This document shows positions 845-51,518 of a DNA stretch of 64,000 nt, in pieces; position 1 is the first letter of the stretch; each line of letters opens with the position of its first letter. Location: NCBI RefSeq assembly GCF_020176715.1, contig NZ_JAIVMF010000001.1, forward strand, positions 186,001 through 250,000, in the 5' to 3' direction. The notes beneath the pieces were generated by a model, which had not been told where the DNA came from, searched no databases, and worked only from the letters and a program-made list of their open reading frames with translations. Position numbers and translations under genes: made by a program. Origin of the DNA: Stappia stellulata (GTDB lineage Bacteria; Pseudomonadota; Alphaproteobacteria; Rhizobiales; Stappiaceae).

Positions 845-1081
845 CGGCGACACGGGCCTCTGAGTCACCTCAGGTCATCTTCTGATTTTGGGCCTTTGCA
901 GCCTGAAAGACAATGTCTGTCCTTTGTCAAGACCGCAGCGTCTTCTCTCCCGCACGCGGATTTGCGGCAAAGGCAATCTCGGTTAGGAAAATCCCGTTCA
1001 CCTGCGCTATCTTCCCGGCAAAACGACAAGCTGAGGGAACGCGCCGCCCGGCGGCCCGACGTTTCCGCGACGGAGGAATTC

Positions 1082-8552: not shown

Positions 8553-9572
8553 TCAGTTTCGGCGGCGCACGGGGAGGTTTGTCAAAAGGTTCTGCGGCTT
8601 CATGCGAATGATGCCGTCGTTCCCCACAGCCAGCCCGAGCCAGACGGGCTTGCCGCGCATGGCCTCGATACTATCGCTGCGGTTGTCAAAGTCGAGCCGG
8701 AACAGCGCTGCGATGCGGCCCAGCTCGCTCTCGTCCACCGGCGTTCCCTCATAGAGCGCGTTCAGGAGGCGCGTCGCCTCTGAATCGAGCCCGATATGCC
8801 AGGACCAGCGTTCGTCGCGGATCGACTGCTGCGGCTGGATCCGAACGCCGACGCCGTGGAAATGACCGATCCAGCTTTCCAGCACGCGCGCGAAGGCATC
8901 GAGCGCCGGTTCGGTGAAGCGGAAATCGATCGCCGTATCGAAGCGGTCGGAGCGCTCCCAGTAGATGTCCTTGTTGTCGTCCCCGAGCACATCGAGGGCA
9001 ACGTCCCGCGTCGGCGTGCCCGCCTCGGCAAGCAAGGCGCCCAGTCCGCCAAGGCCGCCGGTCTTCGAATAGGTCTCGACGATCTCGGCATCGGCGAGCA
9101 TCAGCTGGCCGTCGGCGGTGGTGACCGACTGCTCGCGGAACAGGATCTCTCCGGCCCGCACCCGAAGCGGATCCGCCACCTTGCGCAGGATATTATGCGC
9201 GATGAGATGGACCATCTGGTCGATGAACACCGGCGGGATGGAGACCGTCGCCCCCTCGCCGAACAACGCCGCATAGGACGCCTCTATCGTGCCATGGCGC
9301 GCCAGATGGTCGCGAAACGCCAGAATGACCCGGTAGTTGTCGGCTGCATCCGGATCCCTGATCGCCGCGATCTCCTCGTCGGCGACGGCCCGGAATGGGT
9401 CGCTCATCAGTGCCTCGAACAGGCGATGTTCCGCTTCGCAGGACTCCTCGACGGGATGGATCTCCGGGCGGGTGTAATAGGCGCGCAGGAAATCCGGCGT
9501 GACCGTGAGCCAGCCGTTTTTCTCCCGCTCCACCAGATGCATGCCGGAGGATTTCCAGAAGCTTGGCATCAC
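8553..9572 (-). CDS. DUF6352 family protein
   Basis: A 339-residue soluble protein, opening with MPSFWKSSGMHLVER and carrying DFLRAYYTRPEIHPVEESC, the conserved N-terminal block of DUF6352. No catalytic motif stands out. Its ATG overlaps the stop of the DUF6505 gene (ATGA), so the two are translationally coupled. It is the last gene of the long minus-strand series that begins with the formate dehydrogenase chaperone. The function is unknown; its place argues for a role linked to formate dehydrogenase. Confidence 0.8.
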   Translation of the reverse strand: MMPSFWKSSGMHLVEREKNGWLTVTPDFLRAYYTRPEIHPVEESCEAEHRLFEALMSDPFRAVADEEIAAIRDPDAADNYRVILAFRDHLARHGTIEASYAALFGEGATVSIPPVFIDQMVHLIAHNILRKVADPLRVRAGEILFREQSVTTADGQLMLADAEIVETYSKTGGLGGLGALLAEAGTPTRDVALDVLGDDNKDIYWERSDRFDTAIDFRFTEPALDAFARVLESWIGHFHGVGVRIQPQQSIRDERWSWHIGLDSEATRLLNALYEGTPVDESELGRIAALFRLDFDNRSDSIEAMRGKPVWLGLAVGNDGIIRMKPQNLLTNLPVRRRN

Positions 9573-10054
9573 TCGTCTCCGCTCACGTCCCAGATCCGCG
9601 CGTGCGGCGCGTCCTCAGGCGGGGTCACCAGATGGAAGCGTTCGTTGATTGCCCCCTCGTCATCGATCTCGCGCTGGATCGCCAGTAGGGAATTGATCTC
9701 CAGTTCCTCCGCCAGTTCCATGGTGTCGGCGATCTCGGCCTCCGCCACGCCATGTGCGGCCTCGGCGCTCGGCGCACCGTGCTCGTCGACGAAATGCTGG
9801 GCAAGACGCTCCACCAGCCGGGCGCGCTCGTCTTCGGAGATCTCGGCCGGCGTCGCCAGCGTGGACCAGCCGAAGGTTTCAAGCGACAGGAAGCCCGACA
9901 CGAAAGCCTGGCGGATCTTTCCTTCCAGACCTTCCGGCGTGTAGGCGCGAAAGGCGAAGGTGCCCGGAATGACCCAGTCGCCCGGCTCCGCCGCTGCGGG
10001 AAACACATGGGCGTCCGATGCATCGAGACGGATGGCTTTCAGGAATTTCGGCAT
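9569..10054 (-). CDS. DUF6505 family protein
   Basis: A 161-residue acidic soluble protein. It starts MPKFLKAIRLDASDAHVFP and contains GDWVIPGTFAFR and KIRQAFVSGFLSLETFGWS, the conserved core of DUF6505. It is two bases downstream of the degenerate ligase gene and overlaps the DUF6352 gene, so the three form a tight translational unit. No activity is known for the family. Confidence 0.8.
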   Translation of the reverse strand: MPKFLKAIRLDASDAHVFPAAAEPGDWVIPGTFAFRAYTPEGLEGKIRQAFVSGFLSLETFGWSTLATPAEISEDERARLVERLAQHFVDEHGAPSAEAAHGVAEAEIADTMELAEELEINSLLAIQREIDDEGAINERFHLVTPPEDAPHARIWDVSGDE

Positions 10055-10056
10055 GA

Positions 10057-10824
10057 TCAGGCCTCCGAGGCCTCGAGAGAGGGGGACGTGAGATGCTCGT
10101 TCAGCTTCAGCGACAAGGTGTCGCCGCCGGCCGCGGCATCGCGTTTGAGGAGCAGGTTGCCGCCCTCGTCCAGTCCCAGAAAAGTGCCTTCGACCACACC
10201 GCCGGCCGTCTTGACGGCATGCGGACCGCGATAGCCCTCGGCGCGGAAGAGCCAGTTTTCCAGAACCGGCGCAAAGCCGTCGACATCCCAGGAATGGATC
10301 CAGGTCAAGAGGTGGCGCGACAGCGATTCAATCACCTGTGTCCGGTCGAGATCGACCGCCCCCTCGTCGATCAGGCTGGTGCGGTCGGGCGTTTCGCCAG
10401 GCTCCAGCGGGCCATCGAGCGGCGCCAGCCGGAAGTCGAGCGCAACCACGAGCCAGAGCGGCGCGCCGTCCTCATCCAGCTCGTCGCTCGTCGCCAGGCG
10501 CACTTGTCCCACCGTCGCGCCATTGACCTTGAACACATCCGGCCAGAGAAAGGTGAGCGCCGTCTCCGGCGGCGTGATGGCGCCGAGCGCGTCATTTGCC
10601 GCCACCATGGCGAGGAAGAGCATCTCTACCGCCCGGTCGGGAGGAACCTCGGGTTCCAGAACCAGCGCCAGTGACACGACATCCGTGCGTCTGGACCAGA
10701 CGAGATCGCCGGCGGAGAACCGCCCTGCTCCCGCCTCCGCGCAGGCGGTTTCGAAAACATCTGCGCTCGCCGGCGCGGGATGGCCCGTCAGCAGGGGCGG
10801 AAACGTCGGGTCGGGCGTCAACAC
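10057..10824 (-). CDS. Biotin/lipoate ligase-like protein with DUF4444 C-terminus
   Basis: A 255-residue protein. Residues 1-190 have a biotin/lipoate protein ligase fold: the segment LTFLWPDVFKVNGATVGQV aligns with the BirA KWPND block. The C-terminal 60 residues (WLFRAEGY to the end, with GTFLGLDEGGNLLL) are a DUF4444/BPL-C-like domain. The BirA loop that binds biotinyl-AMP (GRGRRG) is replaced by GAGRFSAGDLVWSRRT, so ordinary biotin ligase activity is doubtful. Its place in the formate dehydrogenase block, coupled to DUF6505 and DUF6352, is unusual for a biotin or lipoate enzyme. Confidence 0.75.
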   Translation of the reverse strand: MLTPDPTFPPLLTGHPAPASADVFETACAEAGAGRFSAGDLVWSRRTDVVSLALVLEPEVPPDRAVEMLFLAMVAANDALGAITPPETALTFLWPDVFKVNGATVGQVRLATSDELDEDGAPLWLVVALDFRLAPLDGPLEPGETPDRTSLIDEGAVDLDRTQVIESLSRHLLTWIHSWDVDGFAPVLENWLFRAEGYRGPHAVKTAGGVVEGTFLGLDEGGNLLLKRDAAAGGDTLSLKLNEHLTSPSLEASEA

Positions 10825-10950
10825 GGCCCCTCTCCTTCACAGATTGAATCACATCGTTCAAGCGGTGCCCGAACGGCCGGACGCGCCGGATCGAGAGTCC
10901 CGTCAAGGACTTGACGGCACGCAGTCATCTTCTGAATCAACTGCAAGCGC

Positions 10951-11148
10951 TCAGCCGTCGCCCAGATCGATCTCGCCGGTCACGACATGTTCGAACGACT
11001 GTCCGTCGATGGTCAGGACCACACGCGCGGGCAAGGTGCCGCTGGTCAGACCGGCATCGCGGACATGCGCCTCAAGCGCCTGCTGCGAGGTCACACCGAC
11101 CTGCTTCAGGAACTTGCGCATGGACATGTTGAAGGTGTCGTTGTCCAT
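10951..11148 (-). CDS. DUF6494 family small protein
   Basis: A 65-residue soluble protein. The ATG at 11148 has AAGGAAGAG just upstream and gives the family's usual start, MDNDTFNMSMRKFLKQVGV. The sequence VTSQQALEAHVRDAGLTSG and the last 25 residues (ARVVLTIDGQSFEHVVTGE) match DUF6494. No function is known. It lies between the S1C protease gene and the ligase-like gene on the same strand. Confidence 0.78.
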   Translation of the reverse strand: MDNDTFNMSMRKFLKQVGVTSQQALEAHVRDAGLTSGTLPARVVLTIDGQSFEHVVTGEIDLGDG

Positions 11149-11253
11149 CTCGTCTCTTCCTTGTGTGACGGGTCTCACGCGAGAGCCTTTCGCCTTCGCA
11201 AAATGATTCAACCCGTTGTCAGTCAGATTCCGTTTTTTGTTTCAAGTCTTTGA

Positions 11254-12267
11254 TCAGTCGTCCAAATCGAGTTCGAGATCAAGCTCGGCGCCATCGCGGC
11301 GCAGCGTCACTTGTCCCCGCGCGTCGGCGCGTTCCATCCGCCCGCGCAAGGCCGCCACCGTGCGCACCGGCCAACCGTCGAACGCCAGCAGCACGTCGCC
11401 GATCCGCAGCCCCGCGCGCGCCGCGGGACCGTCGGCGGCCACATCGACGATCGCCAGCCCGGGACGCTCCGGGCCCAAAGGGGTAGCACGCAGGCGCGCG
11501 CCAAGCGACCTGCGCGCTGAGCTGCCGTCGCGCGCCGCCGCCACCACCCGCTGCACGAGGGGCGCCGACACCGCGAAGTTCACGCCGATATCGCCGTCGC
11601 TCGCTTTCGTGTAGATCGCCGACAACAGGCCGACAAGCCGTCCTTGCGTATCGACAAGCGCTCCGCCGCTGGCGCCGGGATTGACCGCCGCGTCGGTTTG
11701 CACAAAGTCCTCGATGGCATTGAAGCCGATCCCGCCGCGCCCCTGTGCCGAAACCACGCCGCAACTGATCGAGACACCGAGGCCGAAGGCATTGCCGATG
11801 GCGCAGACGGGCGTTCCGGCAACGGGATCGCGTGCGGCGAGCGCAAGCCCCTCTCCCGCCACCGCATCCGGCACGGCGGCGCGCAGGACCGCAAGATCGG
11901 TTTCCGGGTCGCGATGGAGGATTTCCACGGCAAGGATGCGCCCGTCCTCAAGCCGGATCCGCGCGGCGGTGGCGCGGCCAAGCACGTGATCGGCGGTCAG
12001 CAACAGGCCATCGGGCGACAGGCGAACGGCAGAGCCCTCCGGCTCCTGCGTATTCACCGCGCCGGCCGGCCAGTCCGGCAGGAGGGCAACGACCTGGCGA
12101 CGCGCGGCCGAAAGGCTCTCAAGCGCTGCGGACGACGGGGAACTCCCGATCGGCACTGCCATAGCCTGGTCGGCCAGACCTGGAGACGCGCTCACGCCGA
12201 GGGCAATCACGACGCCGAGACCGGCCGCCCTCGCCCTGCTGATCAGATCGGGCAAGGGTGTGATCAA
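11254..12267 (-). CDS. S1C (DegP/HtrA-like) periplasmic serine protease
   Basis: About 337 residues if translation starts at the TTG at 12267, whose TG overlaps the stop TGA of the 50-residue ORF upstream. This start gives a signal peptide (GLGVVIALGVSASPGLA). The trypsin-like triad is complete: His in LLLTADHVLG, Asp in DPETDLAVLRA, Ser in NPGASGGALVD. A single C-terminal PDZ domain follows (GPAARAGLRIGDVLLAFDG). One PDZ domain is the DegS-like architecture. It lies in the formate dehydrogenase gene series, so it may process or degrade FDH-linked periplasmic proteins. The start codon is inferred; no ATG fits well. Confidence 0.85.
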   Translation of the reverse strand: MITPLPDLISRARAAGLGVVIALGVSASPGLADQAMAVPIGSSPSSAALESLSAARRQVVALLPDWPAGAVNTQEPEGSAVRLSPDGLLLTADHVLGRATAARIRLEDGRILAVEILHRDPETDLAVLRAAVPDAVAGEGLALAARDPVAGTPVCAIGNAFGLGVSISCGVVSAQGRGGIGFNAIEDFVQTDAAVNPGASGGALVDTQGRLVGLLSAIYTKASDGDIGVNFAVSAPLVQRVVAAARDGSSARRSLGARLRATPLGPERPGLAIVDVAADGPAARAGLRIGDVLLAFDGWPVRTVAALRGRMERADARGQVTLRRDGAELDLELDLDD

Positions 12268-12416
12268 TCCCCGTCGCCGGACGACAGCCGCACCGCCCCG
12301 GGCGTGTTGGTCGAGTAAACGGCACTGGCGGAATAATCGAGACCATGCGTCAGAAACGCCCAGGCTCCGGTCCCAATCACCGCGACTGCAATGATCGCTG
12401 CTACGAACGCCTTCAT
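12264..12416 (-). CDS. 50-residue single-pass membrane peptide
   Basis: This short ORF starts at the ATG at 12416, which overlaps the stop of the WD40-cytochrome c gene (ATGA), and its own TGA overlaps the TTG start of the protease gene. It has one N-terminal hydrophobic helix (FVAAIIAVAVIGTGAWAFL) followed by a short polar tail ending in LSSGDGD. The helix could be an uncleaved anchor or a signal peptide. The tight overlaps on both sides are the main evidence that it is translated. I do not recognise a family. It may be a small subunit of the formate dehydrogenase or cytochrome complex. Confidence 0.65.
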   Translation of the reverse strand: MKAFVAAIIAVAVIGTGAWAFLTHGLDYSASAVYSTNTPGAVRLSSGDGD

Positions 12417-13783
12417 TTCCCGTCTTCCTTCTTGATCTGCGCGGGCGCCGCACCGGGCGTCGTCGCCTGTTTCAGAAACCGTACCAGCGCATCGCGTTCC
12501 TCGACGCTCTTCAGTCGCTGGATCGGCATTTTCGTCCCCGGCGTGACGACATCCGGGCCGTGATCGAACAGGTCGGAGATCGTCTTTTCGGTCCAGGTGA
12601 AGTCCGCGTCCAGAAGCGCCTGCGAATAGGGATATCCCGGCAGGCTTCCTACCTTTCGCCCGAAGACGCCGTAAAGCGTTGGCCCGGCCCGATTGCCGTC
12701 ATCCGGCGTCAGCGTATGGCAGACCGAGCACTTGCGAGCGAACTGCAGCGCGCCGGGGTCTTCCGTATCCGCCACCTGGAAGCGGCGCGGGAAGGAACTG
12801 CCCACAGGTTCGAACGGCTTGCGCGGTGCGATCTGCCACGCATTCACATGGTCATCGAGCCCTGCGTAGAAGGCGACCGCCCTGTCGCTCGTCAGCGCCA
12901 GGCCCCAGACGGGGCCATAGGGATTCTCGTAGCGTTCGAGAAGTTCCCAGGCTCTTACGTCATAGACGCGGATTTGTCCGTCGCCACCGCCACTGGCGAG
13001 CAGACCGCCGTCCCGGTCCTGCGCGAGGGCCAGCACCGGCCGGTCGTGGCTTGCAAGCTGCTTGGCGACCTCCCCGCTTGCGATATCGACCACCGCGACC
13101 GTTCCGTCCGTTGCACCGAAGGCGATCTCTTCGCCGCCCTCCAGAAGACGGAGGACGTTGATGCCCCAGCCGTGAACGTGAACCTCCCGGAGCAGCGCGC
13201 CGTCGCGGCGGGAAAAGGAGCGAATGACCCCGTCCGACGATCCGGTGAAAACCGTTTCCGCGTCCAGGGAAAACGCCACCGCATTGACGTTGTTGCGATG
13301 GCCGGTCAACCGCCCGGCCGAAACGAGTGCTTCACCGCGAACCTCGAAAAGATGCGCGCTTCGGTCCCAGGAGGCGACCGCAACATGGCGACCGGACGCC
13401 GACACCGCGAGCGACAGCATCTTGTCGTCGCCAGTATCGACACGCGAGAGAACCGACCCGTCGGCAAGGTTCCAGAGCAGCACCGCTCCGTCGTCGCCGA
13501 CCGATACGGCCTTGTCGCCATCGGGCAGGAAACGGGCATCATTTGCCGCCGCATCATGCCCGATCAGCCGCTTTGCCAGCCGCGCCTCGCCATCGGACAG
13601 GTCCCAGAGGATCACGGAGTAATCGAACGACGTGGTCAAGGCGCGGCGCTCGTCGACCGAAAGAACCACGGATTTCACCGGTCCGCCGTGACCGCTCAGC
13701 CGCTCCGGCCAATCGGAGGCCGTCGCCGCACCGGTGAGTGCGGCGACGATCAGGGCGGCACATCCCACGAGATGCCGCACCAC
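12413..13783 (-). CDS. WD40 beta-propeller fused to cytochrome c, periplasmic
   Basis: A 456-residue exported protein with a Sec signal (LVGCAALIVAALTGAATA). Residues about 28-325 form at least six WD40 repeats (for example FDYSVILWDLSDG, GDDGAVLLWNLADG, GSSDGVIRSFSRRDG, GGGDGQIRVYDV). Residues about 345-440 are a class I cytochrome c with CSVCH for covalent heme and Met in GTKMP as the distal ligand. The gene starts five bases after the gamma subunit stop, so it is cotranscribed with formate dehydrogenase. It probably passes electrons or docks a redox partner in the periplasm. The partner is not known. Confidence 0.88.
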   Translation of the reverse strand: MVRHLVGCAALIVAALTGAATASDWPERLSGHGGPVKSVVLSVDERRALTTSFDYSVILWDLSDGEARLAKRLIGHDAAANDARFLPDGDKAVSVGDDGAVLLWNLADGSVLSRVDTGDDKMLSLAVSASGRHVAVASWDRSAHLFEVRGEALVSAGRLTGHRNNVNAVAFSLDAETVFTGSSDGVIRSFSRRDGALLREVHVHGWGINVLRLLEGGEEIAFGATDGTVAVVDIASGEVAKQLASHDRPVLALAQDRDGGLLASGGGDGQIRVYDVRAWELLERYENPYGPVWGLALTSDRAVAFYAGLDDHVNAWQIAPRKPFEPVGSSFPRRFQVADTEDPGALQFARKCSVCHTLTPDDGNRAGPTLYGVFGRKVGSLPGYPYSQALLDADFTWTEKTISDLFDHGPDVVTPGTKMPIQRLKSVEERDALVRFLKQATTPGAAPAQIKKEDGK

Positions 13784-13788
13784 GGAGC

Positions 13789-14955
13789 CTACTCGGCAGG
13801 CTGGGGCGTCGGAGCGGTGGTCGACTTGCCCGCCTCGCCCTGACGCGCAAGCACTTCCTCCACCCAGAGCGAATGGTGCTCCTTGGCCCAGTTCAGGTCG
13901 ACCTCACCCGACCCCATCGCATCGAACGCGCCTTCCATGCCGATCGAGCCGATGTAGATATGGGCGATGATCACACAGACCAGGAAGACACTCATGATCG
14001 AATGCCACAGCGTCGCGAGCTGCTGTTCCTGAAGCACGGACAAGGCGGTGGGCAGGCTGGTCCCGAAGATGGAATTAACCACCTCGAAGGTCCCGCCGAA
14101 GAAATGCGTCGTGTAGGGGAACAGAAGCGACCAGCCCGACACAGACACCGACAGACCGCCAAGGATCGTCAGCCAGAAGATCATTTTCTGGCCGGCGTTG
14201 AACTTCTTCGCGGGCGGATGGAGGTGCTTGGAGAACAGGCCGCCGGCCTGCAGGATCCACTTGATGTCCGTGCGATCGGGCAGGTTGTGCCGCACCCACA
14301 TCACGAAGATCATCGCCAGCCCCGCCATGAAGGCGAAGGCAAGATAATTGTGCAGATACTTGCCGATCATCGTCAGCCAGGCGAAGGCCTCCGCGCCGAT
14401 AACCGGCATCAGAACGTATCGGCCATACATCACGTTGAGGCCGGTCAGCGCCAGAATGATGAAGGAAGACGCCAGCAGCCAGTGACCGAAACGCTCCACA
14501 CCGGCAAAGCGGGTGATGGTCTTGTCGCTGCGCCCGTGCTCGATCTTGATCCGCCCGCGAATGGCAAAGAACAGGCACAGGACCACAATGATCGCGAGCA
14601 GCGCCCAACTGGCGTAAAGGGCGATGGGACCATTGCGCAACGAGCGCCAGAGTTCGCCTTCCGACTGAACCAGCGTGGCGGATTTCTGGTCCGGGATCGA
14701 CACATTGCCGGCTTCGCCCTGGCGCACCGCCCGCCAGAAATCCGTATCCGACGTTCCGCCAAGCGTATTGCCGGGAACGAGGCCATCGACCGGAGATTCG
14801 CTTGCAACCTCGGGCGCTGTGCCCTGCTGCGCCAGCGCCGGCGTATCAGCCGCAAGGACGATTGCGGCAAAAACCGCCAGCGCAATGCCGCCGGCCCTGG
14901 CGGCACGCGCCAGGGTGCCAAGCCTCATGAAAAGTCCATTCGCGATCATGACCAT
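13789..14955 (-). CDS. Formate dehydrogenase gamma subunit (cytochrome b556)
   Basis: A 388-residue membrane subunit that anchors the enzyme and passes electrons to quinone. Residues 1-43 are a signal-like segment ending in PALAQQ. Residues about 44-110 are a periplasmic extension with TDFWRAVRQGEAGNVSIPD. After that come a further helix near 112-130 and the four-helix di-heme core (FGHWLLASSFIILALTGL, KYLHNYLAFAFMAGLAMIF, GQKMIFWLTILGGLSVSVSG, TLWHSIMSVFLVCVIIAHIY), with the conserved His in helices 1, 2 and 4. The E. coli FdoI protein is near 210 residues, so the N-terminal extension is extra, as in other alpha- and betaproteobacterial homologues. GGAG lies before the ATG at 14955. Confidence 0.92.
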   Translation of the reverse strand: MVMIANGLFMRLGTLARAARAGGIALAVFAAIVLAADTPALAQQGTAPEVASESPVDGLVPGNTLGGTSDTDFWRAVRQGEAGNVSIPDQKSATLVQSEGELWRSLRNGPIALYASWALLAIIVVLCLFFAIRGRIKIEHGRSDKTITRFAGVERFGHWLLASSFIILALTGLNVMYGRYVLMPVIGAEAFAWLTMIGKYLHNYLAFAFMAGLAMIFVMWVRHNLPDRTDIKWILQAGGLFSKHLHPPAKKFNAGQKMIFWLTILGGLSVSVSGWSLLFPYTTHFFGGTFEVVNSIFGTSLPTALSVLQEQQLATLWHSIMSVFLVCVIIAHIYIGSIGMEGAFDAMGSGEVDLNWAKEHHSLWVEEVLARQGEAGKSTTAPTPQPAE

Positions 14956-15048
14956 CGTTCACTCTCCCGCCGACATGACGCCGGGCTCCCTCGAATTCGT
15001 CTGCTGTGCGGACCCGGTCCGCACCCCGCCCCTCGCCCGCGGCCTCGC

Positions 15049-15246
15049 TCAGAAGCGCTGACGATCGCCGCGCTGCTGCAGGGCGCGGCGGTCGGCTTCG
15101 GTCAATTCCTCATCCGGTGCCCCCTGATAGACGCCCTTTTCGACGATCAGCGGCCGATTCTGTTCATCTTCCCGACAGCCGGACAGCGCAGAGAGTGCAA
15201 GCACCGACAAAGCGACAACCGCCAACGTCCGATTTCCCGATCCCAC
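15049..15246 (-). CDS. Small lipoprotein in formate dehydrogenase operon
   Basis: A 65-residue protein starting at a GTG (15246) with AAGGAG seven bases upstream. The signal peptide ends in a lipobox LSALSGC, so the mature protein is a lipid-anchored peptide of about 42 residues, CREDEQNRPLIVEKGVYQG followed by an acidic stretch and a basic tail. I do not recognise a named family. Similar short lipoproteins occur beside formate dehydrogenase gamma genes. It lies 93 bases upstream of the gamma gene and downstream of the hairpin that follows the beta gene. Confidence 0.75.
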   Translation of the reverse strand: MGSGNRTLAVVALSVLALSALSGCREDEQNRPLIVEKGVYQGAPDEELTEADRRALQQRGDRQRF

Positions 15247-15612
15247 GTTCAAACTCCTTGCCCATCTCACCCGCGCCGACCGTCCGCCCAACCGGCAGCA
15301 CCATCGACCGACCTGATATTCCTGCCCGACCGGACCGGTTCCTCGAAGGGTCCGTCGCCGGCAAGGCCGGATGCGACCCGACGGCATCCGTATTACACCG
15401 TATGTCTTAGCGCATCCCAGACCTTTTGCCAGTCCGCAGACACCGTTGCGCGGGATTTTCCCACGCACACAAATCTCAGAAAACGTTGCGGCCGGGGCCA
15501 TGCGAAAACGCGCGGGCGGAGCAGAGCCCAAAAGGAGCAGACCCCGTCAATCAGCAGGCAACGACCGCCTGGCCTTCGCGGGCGCCCTTGCGCGGGTCGC
15601 ACCACAGAAAAC

Positions 15613-15635
15613 AAAGGCGGCCAATGGCCGCCTTT
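15613..15635. terminator. Terminator-like hairpin after FDH beta gene
   Basis: Perfect 10-bp arms AAAGGCGGCC and GGCCGCCTTT with a 3-base loop. It lies 28 bases past the beta subunit stop and reads as a terminator or attenuator on the minus strand. It is followed by 366 bases without a convincing gene (15247-15612). It would separate alpha-beta from lipoprotein-gamma transcription, at least in part. Confidence 0.75.
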
Positions 15636-15662
15636 GCCGTGTTCGTCTCAGGCGGCTTCGAC

Positions 15663-16262
15663 CTAGAAGCTGCCGGACTTCTGCTCGTAGGCCGTGCCCC
15701 AGCCCCAGGCGCCGCTGCCGAAGCCGCGGGCGACGACGCGCTCGCGGTAGATCGACGACACGACGTCGCCGTCGCCAGCAAGAAGCGCCTTGGTCGAGCA
15801 CATCTCCGCGCAGAGCGGCAGCTTGCCTTCCGCCAGACGGTTGCGACCGTATTTGGCGTATTCGGCCGACGAGTTGTCGGCCTCCGGGCCACCGGCGCAG
15901 AAGGTGCACTTGTCCATCTTGCCTCGGGACCCGAAGTTGCCCGCCTGCGGGTACTGCGGCGCGCCGAAGGGGCACGCGTAGAAGCAGTAGCCGCAGCCGA
16001 TGCACAGGTCCTTGGAGTGCAGGACCACGCCCTCGTCCGACTGGTAGAAACAGTCGACCGGGCAGACCGCCATGCAGGGCGCGTCCGAACAATGCATGCA
16101 GGCGACAGAGATCGAGCGTTCGCCCGGCTTGCCGTCCTGGATCGTCACCACGCGGCGACGATTGATGCCCCACGGCACCTCATGCTCGTTCTTGCAAGCT
16201 GTCACGCAGGCGTTGCACTCGATGCAGCGCTCGGCGTCACAGAGGAATTTCATCCGTGCCAT
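15663..16262 (-). CDS. fdh3B: Formate dehydrogenase beta subunit, 4Fe-4S (FDH3 type)
   Basis: A 199-residue iron-sulfur subunit that takes electrons from the alpha subunit and passes them to the gamma cytochrome b. Cys motifs for four [4Fe-4S] clusters are present: CIECNACVTACK near the N-terminus, CMHCSDAPCMAVCP, CIGCGYCFYACP, and CTFC later paired with C...MC (CAEMCSTKAL). It has no signal peptide, so it is expected to leave the cell with the TAT-targeted alpha subunit. It lacks the C-terminal membrane helix of E. coli FdnH/FdoH, which is near 295 residues. It starts 12 bases after the alpha subunit stop. Confidence 0.95.
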   Translation of the reverse strand: MARMKFLCDAERCIECNACVTACKNEHEVPWGINRRRVVTIQDGKPGERSISVACMHCSDAPCMAVCPVDCFYQSDEGVVLHSKDLCIGCGYCFYACPFGAPQYPQAGNFGSRGKMDKCTFCAGGPEADNSSAEYAKYGRNRLAEGKLPLCAEMCSTKALLAGDGDVVSSIYRERVVARGFGSGAWGWGTAYEQKSGSF

Positions 16263-16274
16263 GATCTATCCCCC

Positions 16275-19172
16275 TTACGCCACGCGCTCGATGCGGCACA
16301 GCGTGGCCTTTGTTTCTTGCATCTGGGTGACCGAGTCGTAGCCATAGGTCTGGGCCGTATTGGTGGCCTCACCCAGGACATACGGGTCGGAACCCTTCGG
16401 ATACTTGTGCCTCTGGTCCTCGCCCTGGAAGTGCCCGCCGAAGTGGAAGGGCATGAAGGCGACGCCGGTGCCGACACGTTCGGTGACCATTGCCATGACC
16501 TTCACCTTGCCGCCTTCCGGACCATGCACCCAGACCATCTCGCCATCGCGAATGCCAAGGTCGTTGGCATCGCGGGTGTTGATCTCGACGAACATGTCCT
16601 GCTGCAACTCGGCCAGCCACGGGTTGGACCGCGTCTCGTCGCCGCCGCCCTCGTACTCCACCAGGCGCCCCGAGGTGAGAATGATCGGGAAGTCCTTGGA
16701 GAAGTCGTTTTCCTGGATCGACTTGTAGCGGGTGGGGACACGCCAGAAGGTCTTGTCCTCATAGGTCGCATATTTGTCGAGCAGGTCGCGGCGGTTGGTG
16801 TAGAGCGGCTCGCGGTGCAGCGGCACCGGATCCGGGAAGGTCCACACGACGGCACGGGCCTTGGCGTTGCCGTAGGGAGCGCAGCCATGCTTGATCGCGA
16901 CCCGCTGGATGCCGCCGGACAGGTCGGTCTTCCAGTTGGTGTTCTCGCCGGCGACAGCCTCGATGGAGGCCCGCTCCTCGTCGGTCAGGTCCCCGTCCCA
17001 GCCAAGCTTCTGGAGCATGGCCATGGTGAACTCGGGATAACCGTCCTCGATCTCCGACCCGGCCGGCCAGGAAGATTCGGCGAGCAGATTGTCGCCATCC
17101 TTCTCGACGCCGAAGCGGGCGCGGAAGCCCATGCCGCCCTCGGACACCGGAAGCGACGTGTTGTAGAGAACAGCCGAACCGGGGTGGTTCATTTCCGCCG
17201 TTCCCCAGCACGGCCACGGCAGGCCATAGAAATCGCCGTCGGCAGGACCGCCCATCGCGCGCAACGTCGTGCGATCGAAGGTGTGCTGATTCGCCATGTG
17301 AAGCTTGAGGCGCTCTGGCGACTGGCCGGTGTAACCGATCGTCCACATGCCGCGGTTGAACTCGCGGGTCACGTCCTCGATCACCGGCTCGTTGCCCTTG
17401 ACTTCGATGTTCTTGAACATGCCGTCGGCGAAGCCGAACTTCTTGGCGAAGAGATAGGCGATCTCGTGATCGGTCTTGCTCTCGAAGAGCGGGTCGATGA
17501 CCTTCTCGCGCCACTGCAGCGAGCGGTTGGACGCGGTCACCGAGCCATAGGTCTCGAACTGCGTCGTCGCCGGAAGCAGATAGACGCCGTCCTTGCGGTC
17601 ATGCATCACCGCCGACATGGTCGGGAACGGATCGATGATGACCAGAAGGTCGAGCTTCTCCATCGCCTTCTTCATGTCGGGCAGACGGGTCTGCGAGTTC
17701 GGGGCGTGCCCCCAGAACACCATCGCACGGGTGTTGTCCGGCTGCTCCAGATTCGCCTTGTCCTCAAGAACGCCATCGATCCAGCGGGACACCGGGATGC
17801 CCTTCTGGTTCATCATGGCGACGTCCTTGCCGTCCGGCCCCTTCATCGTCGCAAAACGAGCGGCAATGTCCTCGAAGGGAACATCCCAGACGCGGGCCCA
17901 GTGCTTCCACGAGCCTTCTGCGAGACCGTAGTAGCCCGGCAACGTATCGGCGAGAACGCCCAGATCGGTGGCACCCTGGACGTTGTCATGGCCGCGGAAA
18001 ATGTTGGTTCCGCCGCCTTCCTTGCCCATGTTGCCGAGTGCAAGCTGCAGAACGCAATAGGCGCGGGTATTGTTGTTGCCGTTGGTGTGCTGCGTGCCGC
18101 CCATGCACCAGATCACCGTCCCCGGACGGTTGTTGGCAAGCGTGCGCGCGACGCGCTTGAGCTGCGAGCCGGGAACGCCCGTGACGCGCTCGGTCTCTTC
18201 CGGCGTCCACTTGGCGACCTCGGCGCGGATCTCGTCCATGCCCCAGACGCGCTGGCGGATGTACTCGCGGTCTTCCCAGCCGTTCTCGAAGATGTGCCAG
18301 AGAATGCCCCAGACGAGCGCTACGTCCGAGCCCGGACGGAAGCGGACGTACTCCGACGCATGCGCCGCGGTGCGCGTGAAGCGCGGGTCGCAGACGATCA
18401 GCGGCGCGGCGTTTTCTTCCTTGGCCTTGAGAACATGGAGCAGCGAGACGGGATGCGCCTCGGCCGGGTTCCCGCCGATGATGAAGATCGCGCGGCTGTT
18501 GTGGATGTCGTTGTAGGAGTTCGTCATCGCACCGTAACCCCAGGTGTTGGCAACACCTGCGACCGTGGTGGAGTGACAGATACGGGCCTGGTGGTCGACG
18601 TTGTTCGTGCCCCAGAAGGCGGCGAACTTGCGCACCAGATATGCCTGCTCGTTGTTGTGCTTGGCCGAGCCGAGCCAGTAGACGCTATCCGGTCCGCTTT
18701 CGTCGCGGATCTTCAGCATCTGGTCGCCGACTTCCTCGATCGCCTGATCCCAGGAAATCCGCTCCCACTTGCCGTCGACGAGCTTGGTCGGATACTTCAG
18801 CCGGCGCTCGCCGTGGGCATGTTCACGTACCGACGCGCCCTTGGCGCAATGGGCCCCCAGGTTGAACGGGCTGTCGAAACCGGGCTCCTGCCCCGTCCAG
18901 ACGCCGTCCTGCACCTCGGCCAGCACCGTGCAGCCCACCGAGCAGTGCGTGCAAACGGTCTTCTTGATCTCGGCTGCAGCAGCCGTCGGCCCCGCGGCCT
19001 CCGCCTTGCGAACCATGCCACCGGTCAGCGCCCCGGCCGCGGCGAGACCGCCCGCGGCAAGACCGGACCGGCGCAAGAACGTCCGACGGTCCATCGCGCT
19101 GGCCCCCATGGCCTCCACGGCGGAGGTCAACCGGGTGCGACGGGCGACTGCGCTCGTCTTTTTCCTCAGCAT
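16275..19172 (-). CDS. fdhA: Formate dehydrogenase alpha subunit, molybdenum, TAT-exported
   Basis: The catalytic subunit, 965 residues, oxidises formate to CO2 in the periplasm. A twin-arginine signal lies at residues 28-60 (DRRTFLRRSGLAAGG, ending AEAAG). The N-terminal [4Fe-4S] cluster ligands are C74, C77, C81 and C109. The metal ligand is cysteine, C199, followed by H200 (RICHSTTVAG), so no selenocysteine is used. Bis-MGD binding regions follow (IIGGNPAEAHP, WCMGGTQHTNGN) and a C-terminal molybdopterin dinucleotide domain (ILTSGRLVEYEGGGDE). It is downstream of its chaperone and small TAT protein genes and upstream of beta. Its activity needs the FdhD, MobA/B and MoeA encoded at 23.4-26.8 kb. 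Confidence 0.96.
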   Translation of the reverse strand: MLRKKTSAVARRTRLTSAVEAMGASAMDRRTFLRRSGLAAGGLAAAGALTGGMVRKAEAAGPTAAAAEIKKTVCTHCSVGCTVLAEVQDGVWTGQEPGFDSPFNLGAHCAKGASVREHAHGERRLKYPTKLVDGKWERISWDQAIEEVGDQMLKIRDESGPDSVYWLGSAKHNNEQAYLVRKFAAFWGTNNVDHQARICHSTTVAGVANTWGYGAMTNSYNDIHNSRAIFIIGGNPAEAHPVSLLHVLKAKEENAAPLIVCDPRFTRTAAHASEYVRFRPGSDVALVWGILWHIFENGWEDREYIRQRVWGMDEIRAEVAKWTPEETERVTGVPGSQLKRVARTLANNRPGTVIWCMGGTQHTNGNNNTRAYCVLQLALGNMGKEGGGTNIFRGHDNVQGATDLGVLADTLPGYYGLAEGSWKHWARVWDVPFEDIAARFATMKGPDGKDVAMMNQKGIPVSRWIDGVLEDKANLEQPDNTRAMVFWGHAPNSQTRLPDMKKAMEKLDLLVIIDPFPTMSAVMHDRKDGVYLLPATTQFETYGSVTASNRSLQWREKVIDPLFESKTDHEIAYLFAKKFGFADGMFKNIEVKGNEPVIEDVTREFNRGMWTIGYTGQSPERLKLHMANQHTFDRTTLRAMGGPADGDFYGLPWPCWGTAEMNHPGSAVLYNTSLPVSEGGMGFRARFGVEKDGDNLLAESSWPAGSEIEDGYPEFTMAMLQKLGWDGDLTDEERASIEAVAGENTNWKTDLSGGIQRVAIKHGCAPYGNAKARAVVWTFPDPVPLHREPLYTNRRDLLDKYATYEDKTFWRVPTRYKSIQENDFSKDFPIILTSGRLVEYEGGGDETRSNPWLAELQQDMFVEINTRDANDLGIRDGEMVWVHGPEGGKVKVMAMVTERVGTGVAFMPFHFGGHFQGEDQRHKYPKGSDPYVLGEATNTAQTYGYDSVTQMQETKATLCRIERVA

Positions 19173-19307
19173 CTCGTTTCTCCCTCAATCGCGCGAGGCA
19201 TTCCCTTTTCGCCCGCGCGGTGGGCCTCGCATCTGTGCCGATCCGAAGCCTGCGAAAACCGCCGCATCCCTGCCCTTCAGGACAGACGCGGCGTGTCCAT
19301 ACCCGTC

Positions 19308-19499
19308 TTAGAAGCGTGCCGACTTGTAGAAGGTCTTCACGTGATCCGTCTCACGGTAGCCCGCTGCCGTCTCGGGAAGCGCCTGCTCGGCCGAAGCTTT
19401 GCCCGCGACCAGCGTCGCCGAGCCGGCGACCGCACCAAGACCCGCAAGCTTCAAAAAGCTGCGCCGATCCGCTTCCACCGCTGTCTCTTTCCGTTTCAT
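19308..19499 (-). CDS. Formate dehydrogenase region TAT-target small protein
   Basis: A 63-residue protein with a twin-arginine signal (ADRRSFLKLAGLGAVAGS) and a mature tail of about 25 residues ending in YRETDHVKTFYKSARF. The ATG at 19499 has a strong AGGAGG six bases upstream. It fits the family of short TAT proteins found next to formate dehydrogenase operons (TIGR02811 in my memory). It may be exported with the enzyme as a small structural subunit. It sits between the chaperone and alpha subunit genes on the same strand. Confidence 0.85.
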   Translation of the reverse strand: MKRKETAVEADRRSFLKLAGLGAVAGSATLVAGKASAEQALPETAAGYRETDHVKTFYKSARF

Positions 19500-19581
19500 G
19501 TCAACCTCCTCGGTTAAAAGCCGGACATCGGTCCGCACCACATTTTGGGGCACGCGGACCCGGGGTCCGCGCATCCGTCAG

Positions 19582-20271
19582 TCACACCGCGCCGCGCCGT
19601 TCCGCAAACAGCGCATCCGCATGATCTTCCAGTTCGATGAACACCTGCCCGAGCCGGCCGAGCGCGGGATACACCGCTCCGCTGTCTGTAGCCGCAAGGT
19701 CCTTAAAGAAATACGGCGCCCAGGTCGCCAGATGCGCCCGAAAGAAGCGCGACGGCGCGGTCGCCGATCCATCGCCGAATTCGCCCTCGATCAGACCGGC
19801 CATCATCTGGCACAGGGCCGCGATATGGTCTTCCGGCTCCTTGACCTCGGGATCACGCTCCATCCCGAGCCGGCGCATGTCCTGCCGCAACAGGGCGAGC
19901 GGCTTCTCGTTCAGGAAGCCGGTCAGATAGTAGGAGCCATAGGGAACGAGTTCGCCGCGCCCGACGCCGATGAACAGATCATGGTAGTCACGGGCAAGCT
20001 TCTGGGGGTCGGCCTCGGCCGCCGCCCTGGCAAGCACCGCTATCGCGTCCGCCAGATCGCCCGCACCGCCACTCAGACCCGACACGACATCAAGCCAATC
20101 CTGACCGACCGGACCCTGCAGGCCGCTCGCCAGCAGACCATATAACGCCACGCGATCCCGGTCCTCGGGCCCCACATCAAGGTCGGCGCCACTGGACGGC
20201 GCATTGTGCGGTTCTGTCAAACGGTCGCCGGTCGCGTCTTCGCCCGGAACCAGAAATTCTTCAGCCATCAT
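19582..20271 (-). CDS. TorD/DmsD-type molecular chaperone for formate dehydrogenase
   Basis: A 229-residue cytoplasmic all-helical protein of the TorD/NarJ family. These chaperones bind the TAT signal of a molybdoenzyme and hold it back until the cofactor is inserted. The family core is LARDYHDLFIGVGRGELVP followed by YGSYYLTGFLNEKPL, and EDHIAALCQMMAGLI further on. It is the first gene of the minus-strand series chaperone, small TAT protein, alpha, beta, which points to FDH alpha as its client. A second ATG one codon downstream could also be used. The 440 bases upstream hold the likely promoter. Confidence 0.9.
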   Translation of the reverse strand: MMAEEFLVPGEDATGDRLTEPHNAPSSGADLDVGPEDRDRVALYGLLASGLQGPVGQDWLDVVSGLSGGAGDLADAIAVLARAAAEADPQKLARDYHDLFIGVGRGELVPYGSYYLTGFLNEKPLALLRQDMRRLGMERDPEVKEPEDHIAALCQMMAGLIEGEFGDGSATAPSRFFRAHLATWAPYFFKDLAATDSGAVYPALGRLGQVFIELEDHADALFAERRGAV

Positions 20272-20714: not shown

Positions 20715-21899
20715 TCAGCTCTCGATCACGATCTTCGGCGCGGCGCGCTCACCGCCCTCCTTGTGCCGCTCGACCTCGGCCCAGACCTTCGCGGCGATGT
20801 CCTTGTAGACACGCGCGTGGGGACCATCCGGGTCGGTGACCACCAGCGGCGTGCCGGCGTCGGAGTTTTCGCGGATCGCCATGTCGAGCGGAACCTCGCC
20901 GAGGAAGGGAACGCCGAGTTTCTCGGCTTCCGAGCGCGCACCGCCATGGCCGAAAATGTCGTGACGCCCGCCGCAGTCGGGACACAGGAAATAGCTCATG
21001 TTCTCGACGATCCCGAGCAAGGGCACGTCGACGCGGCGGAACATGTTCAGCCCCTTGCGGGCATCGATCAGCGCGAGATCCTGCGGCGTCGACACGATGA
21101 CGGCCCCCGCGAGCGGCACGTTCTGCGCCATGGTCAGCTGCGCGTCGCCCGTTCCCGGCGGCATGTCGACCACCAGAACGTCGAGGTCCCCCCAGGCAAC
21201 CTCGCGCAGCATCTGGGTGATCGCGGAAATGACCATCGGCCCGCGCCAGATCATCGGGGTTTCCTCTTCCACCAGGAACCCCATCGACATCACCTTGATG
21301 CCATAGCCCTCGAGCGGCTTCAGAATACGACCCGACACGGGTTCGGGACGTCCGGTGACGCGAAACAGACGCGGGATCGACGGGCCGTAGATATCGGCAT
21401 CGAGGACGCCGACCTTGAGACCGTTCGCCTGCAGCGCCAGCGCAAGATTGCAGGTGGTGGTGGATTTGCCGACACCGCCCTTGCCTGACGCCACCGCGAT
21501 GATCGCCTTGACGCCCGGAACGCCCGGCTTGTCGCCGGCTCCGGCCGCTGCCGGCTTCGCCCGCCCCTGCATCGGCGGCGGCACATTGGCCGCATCGCCG
21601 GCGCTCGGCGCGGGGCGCACGGGCGGAGGCGTCGGGGCCGGCCCGCTGCCCTGCCCGCGTTCCGAGGTCAGGGCCGCCAGAACCTTGTCCACACCGGGCA
21701 GCTTGGCGACGACTTTTTCCGCCGCCTGGCGCAGCGGTTCGAGTTCCTCGGCGCGCTCCGCCGGAACCGTGATGGAGAAAATGACCCGTCCATCGGAGAT
21801 GAACACATCCGACACAAGTCCGAGCGACACGATATCGCCTTTCAGATCCGGCCCCTTGACCTTCGCCAGTTCGGCCAGAACCTCCTCGCGCGTCGGCAT
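20715..21899 (-). CDS. apbC: Mrp/ApbC (NBP35-like) iron-sulfur cluster carrier ATPase
   Basis: A 394-residue cytoplasmic P-loop ATPase that carries and delivers [4Fe-4S] clusters. Residues about 1-80 are a MIP18/DUF59 domain. After a Pro/Ala-rich linker comes the deviant Walker A ASGKGGVGKST, then DADIYGPSIPRL and DMPPGTGDAQLTM. The CxxC for cluster binding is CPDC in MSYFLCPDCGGRHDIFG. I chose the ATG at 21899 (AAGGGGA upstream); an in-frame ATG at 21926 is possible. It is upstream of the formate dehydrogenase genes on the same strand, separated by a long regulatory gap, and could help load the many clusters those proteins need. Confidence 0.93.
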   Translation of the reverse strand: MPTREEVLAELAKVKGPDLKGDIVSLGLVSDVFISDGRVIFSITVPAERAEELEPLRQAAEKVVAKLPGVDKVLAALTSERGQGSGPAPTPPPVRPAPSAGDAANVPPPMQGRAKPAAAGAGDKPGVPGVKAIIAVASGKGGVGKSTTTCNLALALQANGLKVGVLDADIYGPSIPRLFRVTGRPEPVSGRILKPLEGYGIKVMSMGFLVEEETPMIWRGPMVISAITQMLREVAWGDLDVLVVDMPPGTGDAQLTMAQNVPLAGAVIVSTPQDLALIDARKGLNMFRRVDVPLLGIVENMSYFLCPDCGGRHDIFGHGGARSEAEKLGVPFLGEVPLDMAIRENSDAGTPLVVTDPDGPHARVYKDIAAKVWAEVERHKEGGERAAPKIVIES

Positions 21900-22173
21900 C
21901 TTATTCCCCTTCTTCTTCCAAAACATGATGTCAAACCCGTCCCCGGAACCGATGCCCGGAACGTAAGGGGATCGGGGTAAAGGTCAATTGCCAATCCCCG
22001 ACAAAGATGGTCGCCCGCGGATGGTCGCTCACCAAAGGTTTCGGCGGATCCATAAAATGTGACGCGAATTCTCTTCAAATGTGCCGGTTTCCCTCGGTGG
22101 ATTAACGAAATCGGCAACCCCAGGAGCTCAGAGTGGGTCTCAAGGGGCACGACAAGAAACGGGAACCAGTGCG

Positions 22174-24317: not shown

Positions 24318-24937
24318 CCGCGCCCGCGCTCGTTGGATGCATCCTCGCCGGCGGTCTCGCGCGCCGGATGGGCGGCGGCGACAAGCCGCTGCTGACGCTC
24401 GACGGCCTGCCGATGCTGTCGCATGTCATCGCCCGGCTTGCGCCCCAGGTGGATGCGATGGTCCTGAATGCCAATGGCGACCCGGCCCGCTTTCAGGCCT
24501 TCGGCCTGCCCGTCGCAGCGGACCCGATCGAGGGATTTGCCGGCCCGCTTGCCGGCGTGCTGGCCGGGCTGACATGGGCGCGCAGCCATGCGCCACAGGC
24601 CGAGGGCATCGTCACCGTGGCGGGCGACACGCCGTTCTTTCCGCGCGATCTCGTCGCCACCCTGCTGGGCGCGCGCGGCAGCGACCCGGACACGATCGTG
24701 CTGGCGCGTTCCGGTGGCCACATGCACCCCGTTTTCGGCTATTGGCCGCTGTCCTGCGCCAACGATCTCGACGCCTTCCTGACGGACGGCGCAACGCGCA
24801 AGGTTCTCGCCTTCGTCGACCGGCATCCGAATGCGACCGCCGAGTTCGATGCGGGCCCGGATGGCGGCGATCCCTTCTTCAACATCAACACGCCGGAGGA
24901 TCTGCGCGCGGCGGAAAAGGCGGACGCATTGCGATGA
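24314..24937 (+). CDS. mobA: Molybdenum cofactor guanylyltransferase MobA
   Basis: A 207-residue cytoplasmic nucleotidyltransferase that joins GMP to Mo-molybdopterin to give MGD. The N-terminal GTP-binding motif is LAGGLARRMGGGDKPLL. VAGDTPFFP supplies the Mg-binding Asp, and PFFNINTPEDL is the C-terminal signature. Its ATG overlaps the fdhD stop, and its TGA overlaps the mobB ATG, so the three are translated as a coupled unit. Both formate dehydrogenase and nitrate reductase in this window need its product. Confidence 0.95.
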   Translation: MTAPALVGCILAGGLARRMGGGDKPLLTLDGLPMLSHVIARLAPQVDAMVLNANGDPARFQAFGLPVAADPIEGFAGPLAGVLAGLTWARSHAPQAEGIVTVAGDTPFFPRDLVATLLGARGSDPDTIVLARSGGHMHPVFGYWPLSCANDLDAFLTDGATRKVLAFVDRHPNATAEFDAGPDGGDPFFNINTPEDLRAAEKADALR

Positions 24938-51513: not shown

Positions 51514-51518
51514 GGTTG

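What the first reader, a model, noticed from the sequence alone, without database searches (positions are those of the whole stretch)
8553..20271. Formate dehydrogenase with a large block of uncharacterised partner genes
After chaperone, small TAT protein, alpha, beta, lipoprotein and gamma, the same strand continues with a WD40-cytochrome c fusion, a 50-residue membrane peptide, an S1C protease, DUF6494, a degenerate biotin/lipoate ligase, DUF6505 and DUF6352. Several genes overlap by the stop/start, so they are translated together. None of these seven has a known FDH role. Such tight linkage suggests an extended FDH maturation or electron-transfer system that has not been described.
Basis: partly seen in the sequence, partly recalled or inferred. 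Interest (0 to 1): 0.78.

Follow-up and report, generated by a model that had tools for sequence, protein, structure and literature searches.

The report
Undescribed accessory genes of formate dehydrogenase
A bacterial enzyme that burns formate travels with a set of uncharacterised helper genes; one of them (DUF6352) is found almost only in genomes that have this enzyme, even when it lies far from it, so it probably helps to build the enzyme.

Summary
All 13 genes are present: a Tat-exported, Cys-type FDH3 formate dehydrogenase (beta NF038355, 343.9 bits) and partners. DUF6352 co-occurs strongly with FDH3: FDH3 beta is in 17 of 20 DUF6352 genomes of a class panel (142), 13 of 13 of a phylum panel (249) and 60 of 63 of an order panel (199). 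Five of the six exceptions have other FDH genes beside DUF6352 at contig ends. Linkage alone cannot explain this: of the 80 best DUF6352 loci, 38 show no FDH gene in the stretch fetched, yet 35 of those genomes carry FDH3. The ligase-like protein and DUF6505 are FDH-linked but less universal; DUF6494 also occurs near succinate dehydrogenase; the S1C protease is lineage-restricted. The ligase-like family lost the adenylate loop of biotin ligases (73 of 73); PDB 3BFM, function unknown, is a relative. DUF3305/DUF3306 near FDH is published; my searches found no paper on the DUF6352 set. Most likely this is a cytosolic maturation module of a probably tungsten-dependent FDH3. Many FDH3 genomes lack DUF6352, and no step is shown experimentally.

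The parts
19582..20271 (-). TorD-like chaperone of the FDH operon
   Evidence: NF003442 TorD 65.3 bits, below the equivalog cut-off 132
19308..19499 (-). Small Tat-signal protein, formate_TAT (63 aa from ATG 19499; longer ORF to 19574)
   Evidence: TIGR02811 50.7 bits, cut-off 48.45, on the 88-aa ORF
16275..19172 (-). FDH alpha, Tat signal, Cys-type active-site segment (QARICHSTT)
   Evidence: Translation; best NCBIfam model TIGR01591 473.4 bits, below its cut-off 666.25
15663..16262 (-). FDH3 beta, Fe-S subunit
   Evidence: NF038355 343.9 bits, cut-off 240
15049..15291 (-). Small lipoprotein with lipobox LSGC (by eye); start uncertain
   Evidence: Translation; similar small proteins at this position in relatives
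13789..14955 (-). FDH gamma, cytochrome b
   Evidence: TIGR01583 144.7 bits, cut-off 115.85
12413..13783 (-). Predicted periplasmic WD40 beta-propeller fused to a class I cytochrome c (CSVCH)
   Evidence: WD40 Pfam hits; cytochrome c-550 domain at 347-439; in 32 of 80 DUF6352 loci
12264..12416 (-). 50-aa single-span peptide, overlaps the WD40-cyt stop
   Evidence: similar peptides in 19 of 80 loci at a low threshold
11254..12267 (-). Predicted exported S1C (HtrA-like) protease with PDZ; triad residues seen by eye; lineage-restricted
   Evidence: PF13365, PDZ_6; labelled in 20 of 80 nearest loci, 19 of them beside the block
10951..11148 (-). DUF6494, 65 aa
   Evidence: PF20104 94.6 bits; also near sdhCDAB in 5 genomes
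10057..10824 (-). Pseudo biotin/lipoate ligase (PF16917) without the adenylate loop
   Evidence: PF16917 213.7 bits; loop absent in 73 of 73 of the subfamily; PDB 3BFM E=4.2e-82
9569..10054 (-). DUF6505
   Evidence: PF20115 170 bits
8553..9569 (-). DUF6352, start ATG 9569, 1-nt overlap with DUF6505
   Evidence: PF19879 307.1 bits; starts of relatives
620..3121 (+). Polyferredoxin (about 640-690 aa in most relatives), divergent from DUF3305/DUF3306; true start downstream of the ORF start
   Evidence: Fer4 domains; HMM 892 bits
278..868 (-). DUF3305
   Evidence: PF11749 103.4 bits
1..230 (-). DUF3306, 5' part; the gene straddles the window's left edge (L092:12454-13230)
   Evidence: PF11748 83.8 bits on the L092 ORF; 39 bits in the window
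20715..21926 (-). Mrp/ApbC Fe-S carrier next to TorD; also near FDH3 in relatives
   Evidence: NF008669 354.4 bits, cut-off 348; Mrp in 23 of 91 FDH3-bearing stretches, window included
23403..24937 (+). fdhD (sulfurtransferase) followed by mobA (mobA named by eye)
   Evidence: TIGR00129 144.1 bits, cut-off 140.9, for fdhD

Best explanation
The block is the accessory half of an FDH3-type respiratory formate dehydrogenase locus. Shown by sequence: the enzyme has a Tat signal, a Cys-type alpha subunit, an Fe-S beta and a cytochrome b gamma subunit; DUF6352 is inherited almost only with this enzyme, linked or not. Inferred: DUF6352, DUF6505, the pseudo-ligase and DUF6494, which have no clear export signal, act in the cytosol on the alpha-beta precursor before Tat export, together with TorD, FdhD, Mrp, the polyferredoxin and DUF3305/DUF3306. 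They would serve in cofactor (probably tungsten-bis-pterin) and Fe-S insertion or in holding and checking the precursor. The ligase fold, having lost its adenylation loop, would serve as a binding scaffold rather than an enzyme. The periplasmic WD40-cytochrome c and the small membrane peptide would take electrons from, or stabilise, the assembled complex, and the S1C protease would remove misassembled subunits in the window's lineage.
For: Co-inheritance of DUF6352 with FDH3 beta: class panel 17 of 20 DUF6352 genomes (Fisher p=3e-16), and 2 of the 3 exceptions carry FDH alpha beside DUF6352 (L060, L070); phylum panel 13 of 13; order panel 60 of 63 (p=5e-34), and all 3 exceptions carry FDH gamma at a contig end beside the block. 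Without linkage: 35 of 38 genomes whose DUF6352 stretch holds no FDH subunit or TorD gene have FDH3 beta elsewhere, among them all 16 with a stretch of 19.5 kb or more; background 20 of 142 and 34 of 249. Linkage: 55 of the 60 order-panel genomes have both within 20 kb, the other 5 on different contigs. One FdhA clade of 15 rows (SH-aLRT 99) from several families and more than one class has no DUF6352 genome; Mrp is in 13 of its 15 stretches and the ligase-like gene in 11. No membrane span or signal peptide stands out in DUF6352, DUF6505 or DUF6494; the ligase-like protein has one borderline window. Mrp lies near FDH3 in 23 of 91 FDH3-bearing stretches. A tungstate-type SBP is in 19 of 20 FDH3 genomes against 27 of 122 others (p=4e-10), and its profile matches the solved tungstate-binding protein 3LR1 at E=9e-93. 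That Tat substrates are folded and loaded before export is established knowledge (recalled).
Against: No experiment on any of the four cytosolic families was found. FDH3 genomes lacking DUF6352 are common (3 of 20 in the class panel, 21 of 34 in the phylum panel, 13 of 73 in the order panel), so DUF6352 is not needed by every FDH3, and near-identical FDH3 types differ in it (G360 has it, its sister row G354 does not; G243 lacks it inside a DUF6352 clade). G007 (93% complete, 810 contigs) and three MAGs (L165, L166, L188) have DUF6352 with no FDH3 found. The pseudo-ligase and DUF6505 are missing from many DUF6352 genomes (in 46 and 30 of 80 stretches). No Cys or His cluster in DUF6352 points to cofactor binding; its one Cys is conserved in 90% or more of rows. 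DUF6352 and DUF6505 match no solved structure at a meaningful E-value. Tungsten rests on co-occurrence only. The panels are not phylogenetically corrected and overlap.
Confidence: 0.6

Rival explanations
1. Electron-transfer reading: the whole block, including the cytosolic proteins, forms or regulates an alternative electron outlet of FDH3 (WD40-cytochrome c in the periplasm, polyferredoxin in the cytosol), rather than a maturation path.
For: WD40-cytochrome c is in 32 of 80 DUF6352 loci and in many panel loci; the polyferredoxin has several 4Fe-4S motifs.
Against: DUF6352, DUF6505, DUF6494 and the pseudo-ligase match no redox-cofactor family, and the window copies hold 1, 0, 0 and 1 Cys. DUF6352 persists alone, away from cytochrome and FDH genes.
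Confidence: 0.15
2. Sensor or regulator reading: DUF6352 and partners sense formate, tungstate or FDH status and adjust expression.
For: Tungstate-type transporter genes and an HTH-plus-PBP regulator lie near the block in some relatives.
Against: None of the four families matched a DNA-binding or signalling domain; the HTH-PBP protein is a separate gene and a better regulator candidate.
Confidence: 0.1
3. Downstream metabolism: DUF6352 is an enzyme for a by-product or a step of formate/C1 metabolism used whenever FDH3 runs.
For: It would explain co-inheritance without linkage.
Against: In the window's order 55 of 60 are within 20 kb of FDH3, and in 43 of 111 DUF6352 loci DUF6505 lies directly upstream on the same strand.
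Confidence: 0.09
4. Co-occurrence is an artefact of shared ancestry or large genomes; the genes are neutral passengers.
For: DUF6352 carriers of the class panel have genomes of 2.4-6.5 Mb, while many of the others are smaller; closely related genomes repeat each other in the order and phylum panels.
Against: The class panel draws about one genome per family (140 genera). In seven families (f1, f195, f201, f204, f215, f218, f2) that show both states, DUF6352 and FDH3 are present or absent together. Families f140, f156, f202 and f222, however, include FDH3-only genomes. Unlinked copies persist.
Confidence: 0.06

Closest known systems
TorD/DmsD-fdhGHI operons with DUF3305, DUF3306, fer4 and fdh-tat genes (PMC4464133; 12 passages read)
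   Same: Same core: chaperone, Tat peptide, alpha, beta, gamma, DUF3305, DUF3306 and a ferredoxin gene.
   Different: The passages read do not mention DUF6352, DUF6505, DUF6494, the ligase-like protein, WD40-cytochrome c, S1C or Mrp.
PDB 3BFM, 'Biotin protein ligase-like protein of unknown function'
   Same: Same subfamily as the window's ligase-like protein (profile E=4.2e-82).
   Different: Function unknown in the record title; its genomic context was not checked here. That it comes from a Ruegeria/Silicibacter strain is recalled, not from a call.
Biotin protein ligase BirA
   Same: Same fold region; W of the KWPND motif kept in 72 of 73, P in 69 of 73.
   Different: GRGR loop absent in 73 of 73; Lys at the GKxxG position in only 2 of 73.
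Tungsten-specific maturation of FDH1 in Methylorubrum extorquens (PMC13197769; start of abstract and two passages seen)
   Same: Ties an FDH to tungstate transport and dedicated cofactor assembly; a passage names a moeA1-mobB-tupBCA cluster.
   Different: A different FDH (FDH1, as I recall; the abstract start says a CO2-reducing FDH). The terms DUF, lipoate, biotin and hypothetical do not occur in its main text.

Membership tests
FDH3-type formate dehydrogenase | Beta subunit over the NF038355 cut-off | tested here: met
   343.9 bits, cut-off 240
FDH3-type formate dehydrogenase | Cytochrome b gamma subunit | tested here: met
   TIGR01583 144.7 bits, cut-off 115.85
FDH3-type formate dehydrogenase | Formate oxidation activity | not testable with these tools
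   Needs protein or mutant
FDH-alpha equivalog models (TIGR01591, TIGR01553) | Alpha subunit over the curated cut-off of one of them | tested here: not met
   TIGR01591 473.4 bits, cut-off 666.25; TIGR01553 335.3, cut-off 814.2. These models describe other FDH types; the alpha is assigned by its operon, its Cys-His segment and its best-scoring family.
Tungsten enzyme | W in the active site | not testable with these tools
   Only co-occurrence with a tungstate-type transporter: 19 of 20 FDH3 genomes
Tungstate transporter TupA | Score over NF041772 | tested here: not met
   219.5 bits, cut-off 400, for the L062 protein; the profile nevertheless matches the solved tungstate-binding protein 3LR1 at E=9e-93
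Active biotin protein ligase | GRGRxGR adenylate loop | tested here: not met
   Absent in 73 of 73 of the subfamily, present in the one canonical comparator L091
Active biotin protein ligase | Catalytic Lys (GKxxG) | tested here: not met
   Window has Thr; Lys in 2 of 73
DUF6352 / DUF6505 / DUF6494 Pfam families | Score over the gathering cut-off | tested here: met
   307.1, 170 and 94.6 bits against 25, 23.9 and 24
FDH3-specific factor: DUF6352 | Carrier genomes have FDH3 | tested here: met
   17 of 20, 13 of 13, 60 of 63
FDH3-specific factor: DUF6494 | Carrier genomes have FDH3 | tested here: not met
   15 of 25

The most novel reading that the evidence does not exclude
DUF6352, DUF6505 and the loop-less biotin-ligase fold form an undescribed, FDH3-dedicated pathway that loads the tungsten-pterin and Fe-S cofactors into the FDH alpha-beta precursor, with a dead biotin ligase turned into a cofactor or precursor carrier. 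A rival set (Mrp with the ligase-like protein, DUF6505 or DUF6494, without DUF6352) travels with another FDH3 clade across families and classes.
Probability: 0.2. Interest if true: 0.8.

Novelty: new variant of a known kind. Interest (0 to 1): 0.56.

Why it matters
Metal-dependent FDHs are wanted for CO2-to-formate conversion, and alpha-subunit maturation was named the major bottleneck when one was made in another host (title and start of abstract of PMC13396061, seen in a search listing only). If DUF6352 and its partners are needed for FDH3, making this respiratory type elsewhere would need them. It also gives a testable role to three DUF families and to a solved structure (3BFM) without function.

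Tried and rejected
Guessing a Pfam number for DUF6352 (PF20020) was wrong and found nothing. Profile-profile comparison (hhalign) of 15 families of the module, 105 pairs, gave no pair over 30% probability; in a repeat with a control the best pair reached 2.8%, while the halves of four families found each other at 100%. So DUF6352 is not visibly related to TorD, FdhD or the ligase. PDB sequence searches gave nothing meaningful for DUF6352, DUF6505 or DUF6494. I first noted the S1C protease as window-specific (note); the 80 nearest loci corrected this to lineage-restricted. That note also says 75 stretches; the number is 77, one of them (L092) from the window's own genome. An active ligase was rejected on the missing loop and lysine. 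A chance cluster was rejected on co-occurrence. The neighbours of unlinked DUF6352 copies (DUF1244, tadA, nrdJ, alkA-like and tilS-like genes, named by eye) differ between lineages and gave no functional clue. On the tree I had marked L212 and L220 as carrying Mrp and the ligase-like gene, and L105 and L106 as carrying the latter; the stretches do not show this, so the text uses the counts.

Literature: DUF6352 alone, two of formate dehydrogenase, DUF6505, DUF6494 and DUF6352, and DUF6494, DUF6505, PF19879, PF20115 or PF20104 were searched in the held open library. No paper held the DUF names or numbers; the one hit was for another term. One search found two papers for DUF3305/DUF3306, one of them unrelated. 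A search with 3BFM and formate dehydrogenase matched 3,692 papers, of which 5 were listed, each with 0 occurrences of 3BFM. Searches gave nothing that I used. Older papers that call these genes hypothetical, and subscription journals, would be missed.

Of the 38 stretches without FDH genes 22 are shorter than 19.5 kb, and some (L134, L141, L151, L152, L182, L192) hold other genes of the module. In one search the strong PF16917 set used a cut of about 120 bits (15 genomes), which left out G087 (114.7 bits, the canonical ligase beside nuoN). The DUF6505 set has 13 genomes over the cut-off; a 14th (G091) was below it. FDH3 beta presence in the class panel means over the curated cut-off; weaker ferredoxin hits in 114 further genomes were not counted. 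In the order panel one of the 73 FDH3 genomes (G479) is below the cut-off. Locus labels come from HMMs built partly from the same panel proteins, so they are partly self-consistent.

Full report
What is there. The minus strand from 20271 to 8553 encodes, in order, a TorD-like chaperone, a formate_TAT peptide, FDH alpha, FDH3 beta, a small lipoprotein, FDH gamma, a WD40-cytochrome c protein, a 50-residue single-span peptide, an S1C protease, DUF6494, a PF16917 ligase-like protein, DUF6505 and DUF6352. The alpha has a Tat motif and a Cys-type active-site segment (QARICHSTT, from the translation); it stays below the cut-offs of the NCBIfam FDH-alpha models. Start sites were corrected: DUF6352 at 9569, protease at TTG 12267, DUF6494 at 11148. 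Three junctions overlap; the largest gap is about 371 bp between beta and the lipoprotein. Promoter and terminator scans were uninformative.

Co-occurrence. In a class panel of 142 alphaproteobacterial genomes (about one per family), DUF6352 is in 20 and FDH3 beta over its cut-off in 20, with 17 in common. Of the three DUF6352-only genomes, G071 and G127 have FDH alpha next to DUF6352 (L070, L060). G007, in 810 contigs, has WD40-cytochrome c pieces and a TupA-like gene beside DUF6352 but no FDH gene found. FDH3 without DUF6352: G022, G075, G096. In a phylum panel of 249, all 13 DUF6352 genomes have FDH3 beta; 21 of 34 FDH3 genomes lack DUF6352. In an order panel of 199, DUF6352 is in 63 and FDH3 beta in 73 (one below cut-off), 60 in common; the three DUF6352-only genomes carry FDH gamma at a contig end beside the block, and 13 have FDH3 without DUF6352.

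Co-occurrence without linkage. A scan of named genomes gave 80 best DUF6352 loci. In 42 of 80 the fetched stretch holds an FDH subunit or TorD gene; in 38 it does not, for some because the contig is short. All 38 genomes were searched: 35 have FDH3 beta, among them all 16 whose stretch is 19.5 kb or longer. The three misses (L165, L166, L188) are MAGs. This is the strongest evidence for a functional tie, because linkage cannot cause it. In G028 and in three phylum-panel genomes outside the class (G157, G332, G360) the two genes lie on one contig more than 100 kb apart.

The other partners, class panel: of carrier genomes, FDH3 is in 13 of 15 for the ligase-like protein (over about 120 bits), 11 of 13 for DUF6505 and 15 of 25 for DUF6494. 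DUF6494 lies within about 4 kb of sdhCDAB, on the opposite strand, in five examined genomes (G016, G028, G053, G086, G087); no sdh gene was in the stretches of G008, G030, G118, G120, G122 and G125. It is therefore a wider family. The S1C protease was labelled in none of the 77 stretches L052-L128, in 20 of 80 nearest loci, 19 of them in place beside the block, and in L209, L210, L211 and L222. WD40-cytochrome c is in 32 of 80.

DUF3305 (278-868), DUF3306 (straddling the left edge) and the polyferredoxin (620-3121, true start later) are at the left end of the window. About 5 kb with transporter and LysR-type genes (named by eye) lie between them and DUF6352. These three genes also occur beside FDH3 outside the class, and the link of DUF3305/DUF3306 to fdhGHI was published (PMC4464133, passages read). 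Mrp, the gene upstream of TorD, is in 23 of 91 FDH3-bearing stretches. A TupA-like protein is in 46 of 142 genomes, 19 of the 20 FDH3 genomes among them; in the window's genome tupB-, tupC- and tupA-like genes lie about 250 kb away. The TupA-like protein tested scores below the NCBIfam TupA cut-off but the profile matches the solved tungstate-binding protein 3LR1.

The pseudo-ligase. Aligned with a canonical ligase of a relative (L091, beside nuoN), 73 of 73 ORFs of this subfamily lack the loop with GRGRLGR; Lys at GKxxG is kept in 2 of 73 and at KWPND in 1 of 73, while W is kept in 72. The comparison rests on one canonical sequence plus known BirA motifs (recalled). PDB 3BFM belongs to the subfamily. 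It is thus very unlikely to be a ligase, and its conserved fold suggests binding.

Subtypes. A tree of 65 FdhA sequences (quick method, 17 of 62 inner branches open) needs at least 8 changes of the DUF6352 label against 21.2 when shuffled. One clade of 15 (SH-aLRT 99) has no DUF6352 genome. Its members come from family f24 (unnamed, probably Rhodobacteraceae), f97, from the window's own order (G450, G452, G472, G558, G569) and from another class (G202, G270, G304). In their stretches, some cut short, Mrp is in 13 of 15, the ligase-like gene in 11, DUF6494 in 9, DUF6505 in 7, and the polyferredoxin, DUF3305 and DUF3306 in 15 of 15. The window's FdhA is placed next to this clade with support 91. 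Against a clean split: the window itself has DUF6352, sister rows G360 and G354 differ, and G243 lacks it inside a DUF6352 clade. So accessory content follows FDH3 subtype in part, and for this clade more than host order.

Mechanism. Shown: presence, families, linkage, co-inheritance, loss of ligase motifs. Inferred: cytosolic location (no clear signal or span), action before Tat export, a role in cofactor or Fe-S loading or in precursor holding. Tungsten use is inferred from the transporter. I hold the association of DUF6352 with FDH3 as near certain (about 0.95), a maturation role at about 0.6, and any specific chemical step as open. On checking, the maturation figure was lowered from 0.62 to 0.6 because of the mixed rows in the tree.

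Verdict. A real, conserved, little-described accessory module of FDH3; a new variant of the known kind 'FDH accessory genes'.

Noticed in passing
window 50600-61300 (-): A narGHJI nitrate reductase set with NarK-like transporters (named by eye from translations) about 30 kb from the FDH locus.
   Followed up: no
L075, L080, L087, L088, L229: DUF6494 lies near sdhCDAB, on the opposite strand, in these five genomes; it may serve several membrane Fe-S dehydrogenases.
   Followed up: partly
L225 (G531:C30): A second, divergent FDH3 locus with a long FdhA branch (0.56) and no labelled accessory genes besides the Tat peptide.
   Followed up: no
L226 (G000:C1:452-454 kb): tupB-tupC-tupA-like tungstate transporter genes in the window's own genome, unlinked to FDH.
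   Followed up: partly
L054:13636-14517, L062:15629-16504: HTH plus PBP-like protein (PF12728, PF12727 for the L054 copy) between the block and the tungstate-type transporter; a candidate tungstate or pterin-linked regulator.
   Followed up: no
L063:6854-7141 and similar: A small single-span protein of about 70-110 aa ('TM90') often next to DUF6352 or DUF6494 (26 of 80 loci); no Pfam family.
   Followed up: no
L092:11070-12071 (+): moaA-like gene (by eye) close to DUF3306, just outside the window, so pterin-cofactor genes flank the module.
   Followed up: no
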